Below, piece after piece: positions 46,800 to 46,920 of a stretch of DNA of 64,000 nt; position 1 is the first letter of the stretch, and each line of letters starts with the position of its first letter. The stretch lies in contig CAUJIM010000088.1 of NCBI GenBank assembly GCA_963205335.1, positions 1 to 64,000 on the forward strand, written 5' to 3'. Source of the stretch: Pseudomonadota bacterium (GTDB lineage Bacteria > Pseudomonadota > Gammaproteobacteria > Burkholderiales > Burkholderiaceae_C). A program made the position numbers and the translations under genes. The notes beneath the pieces are model-generated. The model had not been told where the DNA came from. It did not search any database and worked only from the letters and a program-made list of their open reading frames with translations.

Positions 46800-46820
46800 T
46801 TCTTGGAGACGTTAGTTTCT
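46800..46820 (+). promoter_or_regulatory. Predicted Cascade binding site: TTC PAM plus partial protospacer
   Basis: TTC at 46800-46802 is the type I-C PAM. The next 18 bases match the pseudo-spacer at 46859-46876 at 16 positions. The first 11 (TTGGAGACGTT) are contiguous; mismatches are at positions 12 and 16. Beyond position 18 the match ends. It lies between two outward-facing TACAAT boxes, minus-strand 46790-46795 and plus-strand 46824-46829. Confidence 0.7.
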
Positions 46821-46823
46821 ATA

Positions 46824-46829
46824 TACAAT
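46824..46829 (+). promoter_or_regulatory. Candidate -10 box of the crRNA-like RNA
   Basis: TACAAT on the plus strand, with TTGGAG 15 bp upstream as a poor -35, would start transcription near 46836, just before the pseudo-repeat hairpin. Both elements overlap or flank the predicted Cascade site. Confidence 0.4.
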
Positions 46830-46831
46830 AC

Positions 46832-46920
46832 ATGCTTCGCGTGAGCGTGGATTGAAACTTGGAGACGTTTGTTGCTGGGCAACAGCGAGAGGGGTGGGGC
46901 TATGCCTCACCCCTTTTCCT
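46832..46920 (+). ncRNA. crRNA-like regulatory RNA (Cas-regulating/CreA-type candidate)
   Basis: The pseudo-repeat at 46838-46858 has a small hairpin (CGC-GTGA-GCG) and ends in GCGTGGATTGAAAC, identical to the last 14 nt of the array repeat, so Cas5d could process it into a normal 5' handle. The pseudo-spacer begins at 46859 with TTGGAGACGTT and matches a PAM-flanked site 56 bp upstream. A 6-bp hairpin (TGTTGC/GCAACA) follows, then a strong terminator. It runs opposite to all cas genes. Limited seed matching would let Cascade bind and repress without full interference. This logic is known for CreA and Cas-regulating RNAs in other subtypes; its presence here is inferred. Confidence 0.7.
46891..46920 (+). 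terminator. Intrinsic terminator of the crRNA-like RNA
   Basis: A 10-bp stem GGGGTGGGGC/GCCTCACCCC with one G-T wobble and a TAT loop is followed by TTTTCCTTT on the plus strand. On the minus strand no T tract follows, so it is oriented for the small plus-strand RNA and not for cas3. Confidence 0.88.

What the first reader, a model, noticed from the sequence alone, without database searches (positions are those of the whole stretch)
46800..46920. A crRNA-like RNA in the cas3-cas5 gap aims Cascade at a PAM-flanked site in the same gap
Seen directly: a solitary repeat remnant (46845-46858) is identical to the last 14 nt of the array repeat but on the opposite strand and 7 kb away. Its pseudo-spacer from 46859 matches 46803-46820 at 16 of 18 positions, with an 11-nt unbroken seed. 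The three bases before that match are TTC, the type I-C PAM. A 10-bp stem with a TTTT tail closes the unit on the plus strand, where no protein gene precedes it. The target lies between two outward-facing TACAAT boxes. Known: CreA antitoxin RNAs and Cas-regulating RNAs use partial spacer matches so Cascade represses a promoter without triggering Cas3. Inference: this type I-C locus carries such an autoregulatory or addiction module. I do not recall a described type I-C example, though I could not search.
Basis: partly seen in the sequence, partly recalled or inferred. Interest (0 to 1): 0.95.

Follow-up and report, generated by a model that had tools for sequence, protein, structure and literature searches.

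The report
CRISPR-guided off-switch for its own genes
A short stretch between two CRISPR genes is predicted to make a small guide RNA that likely steers the bacterium's own CRISPR complex onto the promoter of its own genes and of an unknown small, probably membrane, protein and shuts them down; guide-and-target pairs of differing sequence occur in 28 of the 45 examined loci that have room for one.

Summary
The cas3-cas5 gap of this type I-C locus carries a plus-strand crRNA-like unit: -10 box, short hairpin, 11-nt I-C handle, guide, terminator-like hairpin. The guide matches a TTC-flanked site in the same gap at 16 of 18 positions. Of 141 distinct I-C loci examined, 45 have a cas3-cas5 gap of at least 100 bp, and 28 of these carry such a unit; in the 96 tighter loci the scan found none. 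Guides differ between loci and targets follow them. Positions 13-14, not used for selection, match in 24 of 28; positions 12 and 18-20 are at or below chance, the periodicity expected of Cascade pairing. Its family accompanies 18 of 28 units; no confident hit was seen away from one. In two loci it is the only gene downstream of the target. I read the unit as a type I-C CreR-like autorepressor that may double as a CrePA-like lock on a toxin or effector. Transcription, repression and toxicity are inferred; there are no RNA or reporter data.

The parts
46824..46829 (+). -10-like box TACAAT of the crRNA-like unit, 8 nt before the hairpin
   Evidence: a similar box lies 2-8 nt before the stem in 15 of 21 units tested, 4.5 expected from shuffles
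46838..46847 (+). hairpin CGC-GTGA-GCG of the degenerate repeat; its 3' end abuts the handle
   Evidence: fold; an alternative 5-pair stem ending at the same base was listed
46848..46858 (+). 11-nt 5' handle TGGATTGAAAC; identity to the array repeat runs 46845-46858
   Evidence: I-C Cas5d leaves an 11-nt 5' handle (passage in PMC5965380)
46859..46887 (+). guide (pseudo-spacer); seed 46859-46869
   Evidence: 16 of 18 match to 46803-46820
46888..46917 (+). terminator-like hairpin with T run 46914-46917
   Evidence: across units such a hairpin with a T run passes in 8 of 28, 2.1 expected
46800..46802 (+). TTC PAM of the target
   Evidence: TTC in 26 of 28 units
46803..46820 (+). target (protospacer) of the guide, beside the -10 box of the ORF/cas5 promoter
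   Evidence: only site for TTC+seed with up to 1 mismatch in the draft genome
46790..46795 (-). -10-like box TACAAT of the promoter thought to be repressed, 4 nt past the PAM
   Evidence: a box 1-11 nt past the PAM in 18 of 21 units tested, 5.9 expected
46762..46768 (-). Shine-Dalgarno-like GAGGTGG of the small ORF
   Evidence: by eye
46580..46756 (-). gene of a 58-aa predicted single-pass membrane protein (motif ELRLMxxQPxxRF)
   Evidence: 60 proteins listed, the window's own among them; purifying selection in three pairs; AlphaFold2 model of a short and a long helix, pLDDT 83.9; no Pfam, PADLOC or NCBIfam match for this protein
45919..46572 (-). cas5 (Cas5d/c), first cas gene after the target promoter
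   Evidence: PF09704, TIGR01876
44153..45952 (-). cas8c (csd1)
   Evidence: PF09709, TIGR01863
43170..44156 (-). cas7
   Evidence: PF05107
46921..49323 (-). cas3, upstream of and outside the target promoter
   Evidence: Cas3 domains
40269..42264 (-). cas4, cas1, cas2
   Evidence: PF01930, PF01867, PF09827
39927..40032 (-). CRISPR array, two 37-nt repeats and one spacer
   Evidence: CRISPR-DR9, just under its gathering score

Best explanation
The cas3-cas5 gap encodes a predicted crRNA-like RNA whose guide matches a TTC-flanked site beside the likely promoter of the 58-aa ORF and cas5, so that type I-C Cascade loaded with it would probably sit on that promoter and repress its own operon together with the small protein. 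Steps: (1) the RNA would start at the hairpin from the 46824 box and end at the 46916 hairpin (inferred). (2) Cas5d would cut at the hairpin base and leave the 11-nt handle, as in ordinary I-C crRNA (inferred; the geometry is shown). (3) The guide matches positions 1-11, 13-15 and 17-18; in the pooled units pairing runs to about 17 with 6 and 12 free, enough for binding but probably too short to trigger Cas3 (sequence shown; consequence inferred by analogy with CreA). (4) The bound complex would cover the stretch just upstream of the -10 box at 46790-46795 and, in this locus, also the unit's own -10 box, so both divergent promoters would be shut (inferred). (5) If immune crRNAs or anti-CRISPRs draw Cascade away, new Cascade and the small protein would be made (inferred). 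Because the protein is conserved under the target, and in two loci is the only gene there, a toxin or effector held down by Cascade (CrePA-like) is a serious possibility, but untested.
For: 28 units in 45 distinct I-C loci with a cas3-cas5 gap of at least 100 bp, 0 in 96 tight loci (tight loci were scanned for same-strand targets only). Match by position over 28 units: 1-5 and 7-11 at 24-28 (used for selection); 6 at 12 (7.4 expected from swapped pairs), 12 at 5 (9.9), 13 and 14 at 24 (8.4, 9.3; p about 1e-9 and 1e-8), 15-17 at 16-17 (6.4-9.8), 18-20 at 6-8 (5.6-7.5), 21 at 14 (8.0), 22-24 at 7-10 (6.6-8.6). This fits type I crRNA bases 6, 12 and 18 flipping out (passage in PMC5965380) and CreA pairing at 1-5 and 7-11 (passage in PMC8501985). 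PAM: 26 TTC, 1 TTT, 1 GTT. Stems of differing sequence end at the 11-nt handle: 18 of 23 have at least 4 pairs there, 4-10 of 23 at offsets +1 to +6; shuffled 19.7%. -10 boxes on both sides. Independent route: the small-protein profile alone found 5 genomes of 399 in the order below E 1e-7; all 5, the window among them, have the unit and the ORF between cas3 and cas5. The ORF is under purifying selection. One target site in the genome.
Against: No transcript, processing or repression data. Loci are not independent (L003/L007, L040/L145, L070/L071, L096/L100, L159/L161 share guides in part), so p-values are optimistic. L024 and L087 match only 8 of 10; L087 would need a 1-nt shift. L022 and L071 show no stem at the expected offset; L007, L010 and L114 have 3 pairs; offset -1 also gives 18 of 23, as nested stems must; stems of the last 5 units were not tested. 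Between L003 and L007 the one difference in the first 11 positions is at 6, which Cascade should not read, so that pair shows no selection on pairing. No -35/-10 pair was found in the window's gap. No target-side -10 of 4 of 6 or better in L150, L151 and L181; in L031 and L181 the target lies by the cas3 end rather than over an obvious promoter. A hairpin with T run follows the guide in only 8 of 28. 17 of 45 roomy gaps lack a unit. On the Cas5 tree presence needs 24 changes, shuffled mean 26.0, 78 of 500 shuffles as low. The array has one spacer and the genome is a draft (86.6% complete). Ten of 28 units lack the ORF family.
Confidence: 0.86

Rival explanations
1. The unit is chiefly a toxin-antitoxin lock (CreTA/CrePA-like): the RNA is an antitoxin that uses Cascade to silence the small membrane protein, and repression of cas genes is a by-product of their sharing the promoter.
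For: ORF family under the target in 18 of 28 units; in L150 and L151 the module is flipped, so the target faces the ORF alone, away from cas5; L159, L161 and L177 have unrelated small ORFs beside the unit; among the first 110 loci the family profile hit only unit-bearing ones; predicted single long hydrophobic helix.
Against: L010, L016, L071, L100 and L181 have the unit with no family ORF, and in L010 and L016 the target sits just upstream of cas5; the conserved ELRL..QP..RF motif suggests a specific partner rather than a generic pore; L061's ORF is interrupted by a frameshift while its unit stays matched. L150 and L151 belong to the family only by weak scores (E about 5e-4) and were not found at E 1e-3 in whole genomes.
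Confidence: 0.4
2. The small protein is an accessory CRISPR effector (for example a membrane partner of Cascade), not a toxin, and the RNA simply co-regulates it with Cascade.
For: Directly upstream of cas5 in most loci that have it, no match of the window's protein in the plasmid or phage collections, conserved motif next to the helix.
Against: Missing from 10 of 28 units and not detected by profile in the unit-free loci among the first 110; pointing away from cas5 in L150 and L151.
Confidence: 0.4
3. An RNA anti-CRISPR (Racr) or captured solitary repeat that poisons Cas proteins.
For: Solitary repeat with a promoter-like box; a type I-C Racr exists (passages in PMC10651486).
Against: Racrs are described from viruses and plasmids and as repeat mimics; here a matched TTC-flanked target covaries in the same gap of cas loci.
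Confidence: 0.02
4. A decayed leftover of an array whose spacer came from the neighbouring DNA, with no present function.
For: The match fades after position 17 in most units; L061 and L022 keep longer matches, as a copied origin predicts.
Against: Decay would not spare 1-5, 7-11, 13, 14, the TTC, the stem-handle junction and the -10 boxes across unrelated guides.
Confidence: 0.03

Closest known systems
CreR (cas-regulating RNA; reported for types I-B, I-E, V-A)
   Same: crRNA-like RNA beside cas genes, limited match to the cas promoter region, predicted autorepression of effector genes
   Different: type I-C here; in the window one upstream repeat and a terminator-like hairpin (L159 and L161 show a second repeat-like stretch by eye); target promoter would drive Cascade but not cas3; a small protein gene sits between target and cas5; at least four layouts among relatives
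CrePA (protein toxin plus CreA RNA)
   Same: Cascade guided by a crRNA-like RNA to the promoter of a gene beside cas genes
   Different: CreP typically has a KilA-N domain (review PMC12737573, section 10); here a roughly 40-75 aa single-pass protein, toxicity untested, mostly in line with cas5
CreTA (RNA toxin plus CreA RNA; I-B, I-F)
   Same: pseudo-repeat plus pseudo-spacer plus terminator, TTC target, pairing at 1-5 and 7-11 (PMC8501985 passages)
   Different: a conserved protein gene under selection lies at the target instead of a known RNA toxin
Racr RNA anti-CRISPRs
   Same: solitary repeat with its own promoter
   Different: described from viruses and plasmids; no matched target beside it

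Membership tests
CreR | crRNA-like unit outside the array, next to cas genes | tested here: met
CreR | limited guide match with PAM at the cas promoter | tested here: met
   the promoter itself is only predicted
CreR | RNA made, processed and loaded into the effector | not testable with these tools
   no RNA data; hairpin-handle geometry fits Cas5d cutting
CreR | represses cas genes, relieved by crRNA load or Acr | not testable with these tools
   no expression data
CrePA | protein-coding gene under the CreA target | tested here: met
   18 of 28 units have the ORF family
CrePA | KilA-N toxin that blocks cell division | tested here: not met
   no Pfam domain in the window's small protein; typical, not universal, by the review; so it works like CrePA at most and is not filed as a member
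CrePA | protein is toxic when Cascade is blocked | not testable with these tools
   needs expression in a laboratory strain
CreTA | toxin is a small RNA | tested here: inconclusive
   the ORF under selection argues against it where present; no RNA toxin was searched for in the units without the ORF
Racr | encoded by phage or plasmid, without target | tested here: not met
   cas-locus context and matched target
type I-C CRISPR-Cas | cas3-cas5-cas8c-cas7-cas4-cas1-cas2 | tested here: met
   presence or absence of cas6 was not searched

The most novel reading that the evidence does not exclude
Type I-C systems carry a hybrid of CreR and CrePA: one crRNA-like RNA lets Cascade cap its own synthesis and, through the same promoter, hold down a new family of single-helix membrane toxins. 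A phage anti-CRISPR would then release fresh Cascade and the toxin together, refill first and abortive death if the refill fails. The module flips, loses the toxin, or swaps it for an unrelated small protein, and its guide is rewritten in nearly every lineage.
Probability: 0.38. Interest if true: 0.92.

Novelty: new variant of a known kind. Interest (0 to 1): 0.82.

Why it matters
CreR autorepression is described for I-B, I-E and V-A (passage in PMC13131331); I found no I-C example in ten library searches, five of which named type I-C. If it works, type I-C has a built-in sensor of crRNA load and anti-CRISPRs, with 28 natural guide-target pairs that serve as a ready mutational series. The small protein has no match in three family libraries, and its place makes a sharp prediction: it is released when Cascade is disabled. 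Proteins of this family are named for Inhella inkyongensis and Aquincola tertiaricarbonis, whose contig lengths equal those of the loci L013 and L024, so cultured carriers probably exist.

Tried and rejected
Rejected: chance; Racr; inert relic. A link to the window's Bro-N gene was tested and dropped: 5 of 71 loci with cas7 have Bro-N, 2 with a unit and 3 without. No unit upstream of cas3 in the scan, which reaches that far only in part of the 80 loci and looked for same-strand targets. Small protein in plasmids and phages: no match. Rfam gave the two array repeats below their gathering score and weak hits only. The promoter scan found no sigma-70 pair in the gap. A terminator test over the units gave a weak result, 8 of 28. 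Rows dropped from counts: L047 (seed 8 of 10, an overlap with its own local repeat, outside the gap), in-array hits L088 and L090, and a reverse reading of the window's own match with its copies L113 and L143. In the order search 172 of 399 genomes had a small-protein match at E up to 1; only the five below 1e-7 were taken, the rest counted as noise and not followed. In the class search 5 of 369 genomes passed E 1e-3: the window, G1034 and G920, which have units, and G1090 and G827, whose contexts looked unrelated. Near-copies were removed at 98.5% identity over 300 nt of cas5. The first survey script stopped on an error and was replaced.

Full report
What is there. The window holds a type I-C locus on the minus strand: cas3, a 348-bp gap, cas5, cas8c, cas7, a Bro-N gene, cas4, cas1, cas2 and a two-repeat array. 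In the gap the plus strand carries, in order, a TTC and the site 46803-46820, a TACAAT box, a short hairpin, an 11-nt handle, a guide and a terminator-like hairpin. The minus strand carries a TACAAT box, a Shine-Dalgarno-like stretch and a 58-codon ORF that ends 7 nt before cas5. The repeat end is identical to that of the array and, with up to 1 mismatch, is the only copy outside the array in the draft genome. The target is the only such site in it.

More than chance. In 110 I-C loci (30, 80; near-copies included) I scanned 1,328 handle-like sites. Of 123 solitary ones, 15 had at least 8 of 10 seed matches beside a TTC within 400 nt; one of these (L047) is spurious. Of 1,205 in-array sites, 2 did. 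Shuffled guides reached 10 of 10 in 0 of 26,560 trials. With the order and class searches, an any-PAM scan and a scan of both strands in roomy gaps (shuffled guides 9 of 10 in 0.14%, 10 of 10 in none) the total is 28 units. After removing near-copies there are 141 loci with cas3 and cas5 in reach: 96 with gaps under 100 bp and no unit found, 45 with larger gaps, 28 of them with a unit (24; L031, L159, L161 and L177).

Guide and target covary. For 23 units the mean seed match is 9.43 of 10 within a locus and 3.17 of 10 between loci; 7 of 506 swapped combinations reach 8, all within four pairs of similar units. Across 28 units the positions not used for selection behave as Cascade pairing predicts: 13 and 14 match in 24, 15-17 in 16-17, but 12 in 5 and 18-20 in 6-8, at or below chance; 6 matches in 12 against 7.4 expected, and 21 in 14 against 8.0, a mild excess that I do not explain. 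26 of 28 PAMs are TTC. Dropping the PAM requirement added, at 9 or more seed matches, one TTT case (L070) and one GTT case (L166). The flipped bases 6, 12, 18 are described in PMC5965380 (passages), the 1-5/7-11 rule and TTC for I-B CreA in PMC8501985 (passages). TTC as a type I-C PAM appears in PMC12231136 (passage) and PMC8406640 (search listing).

RNA shape. I-C pre-crRNA is cut by Cas5d to leave an 11-nt handle (PMC5965380 passage). In 18 of 23 units a stem of at least 4 pairs ends exactly there, against 4-10 of 23 at offsets +1 to +6 and 19.7% of shuffles; offset -1 also gives 18, since a stem contains its inner pairs, but the mean length peaks at offset 0 (4.7 against 3.7). Stems differ in sequence between loci. 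L022 and L071 fail, and L007, L010 and L114 have 3 pairs. A -10-like box lies 2-8 nt before the stem in 15 of 21 units, 4.5 expected. A hairpin with T run after the guide passes in only 8 of 28, 2.1 expected, so the 3' end is less uniform than the rest.

What it would repress. On the other side of the PAM a -10-like box lies 1-11 nt away in 18 of 21 units, 5.9 expected, so bound Cascade would cover the -35 region. In the window this promoter would read the ORF, then cas5-cas8c-cas7. In L159, L161 and L177 the unit sits on the cas strand after a small ORF and its target is on the opposite strand; in L159 and L161 it overlaps a TTGACA. In L070, L071, L181 and L031 the unit lies on the cas strand upstream of cas5; in L181 and L031 the target is by the end of cas3 and its promoter link is unclear. 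In L150 and L151 the module is inverted: the target faces the small ORF alone, toward cas3, though no -10 box of 4 of 6 was found there.

The small protein. One search lists 60 proteins at E up to 1 (59 at 1.6e-5 or better), without genomic context. Among the first 110 loci its profile hits 10, all with a unit. In the order search it gave 5 of 399 genomes below E 1e-7, the window among them; all 5 proved to be unit-bearing I-C loci. In all, 18 of 28 units have it at E 1e-3 or better among the ORFs of their loci; L061 (frameshifted), L150 and L151 are the weakest. Synonymous changes far exceed nonsynonymous ones in the three pairs tested, e.g. 33.3 of 39.5 sites against 12.7 of 134.5 for L003/L007. 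AlphaFold2 gives a short helix and one long helix, pLDDT 83.9. The window's protein has no match in Pfam, PADLOC or NCBIfam.

Reading. I commit to Cascade-guided autorepression (CreR-like), at 0.86. Whether the small protein is a toxin (CrePA-like) or an accessory effector I cannot settle; I put these near 0.4 each. The papers seen name CreR for I-B, I-E and V-A (PMC13131331, passages) and CreTA for I-B and I-F (PMC8501985 and PMC9458426, passages; PMC10097628, search listing). A review calls CreR widespread in type I and V-A without naming I-C (PMC12737573, passages and section 10). No I-C example turned up in the ten searches. The library lacks most subscription papers, including the original CreR paper, which I recall but did not see.

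Limits. No transcript or repression was measured. Relatives share history. Presence is patchy on the Cas5 tree of 141 rows (24 changes, at least 15 forced by well-supported branches), which fits repeated loss, gain or transfer; I did not separate these. Many loci are from metagenome-assembled genomes.

Noticed in passing
window 42276-43157 (-): A Bro-N gene sits inside the I-C operon between cas7 and cas4; it matches the PADLOC candidate defence family PDC-S13 (E 8.5e-117) and occurs in 5 of 71 loci with cas7.
   Followed up: partly
window 39927-40032 (-): The array has only two repeats and one spacer, one repeat slightly decayed, so immune crRNA competing with the CreR-like RNA may be scarce.
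   Followed up: no
L159, L161, L177 cas3-cas5 gaps: Unrelated small ORFs with a hydrophobic stretch (by eye) precede a cas-strand unit whose target is on the opposite strand; a different cargo in a similar circuit.
   Followed up: partly
L171 and L178 cas3-cas5 gaps: The gap holds an ORF that looks like a GIY-YIG nuclease by eye; no unit was found there.
   Followed up: no
L041 cas3-cas5 gap: The gap holds what looks by eye like an antitoxin and PIN-toxin pair.
   Followed up: no
L090:9157 (+): An in-array spacer has a near-copy 193 nt away (16 of 18), probably a duplicated spacer.
   Followed up: no
window 49288-51459 (+): A DinG-like helicase gene (Helicase_C_2, DEAD_2) lies head to head with cas3; the two ORF calls overlap by 36 bp, so cas3 probably starts further in.
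   Followed up: no
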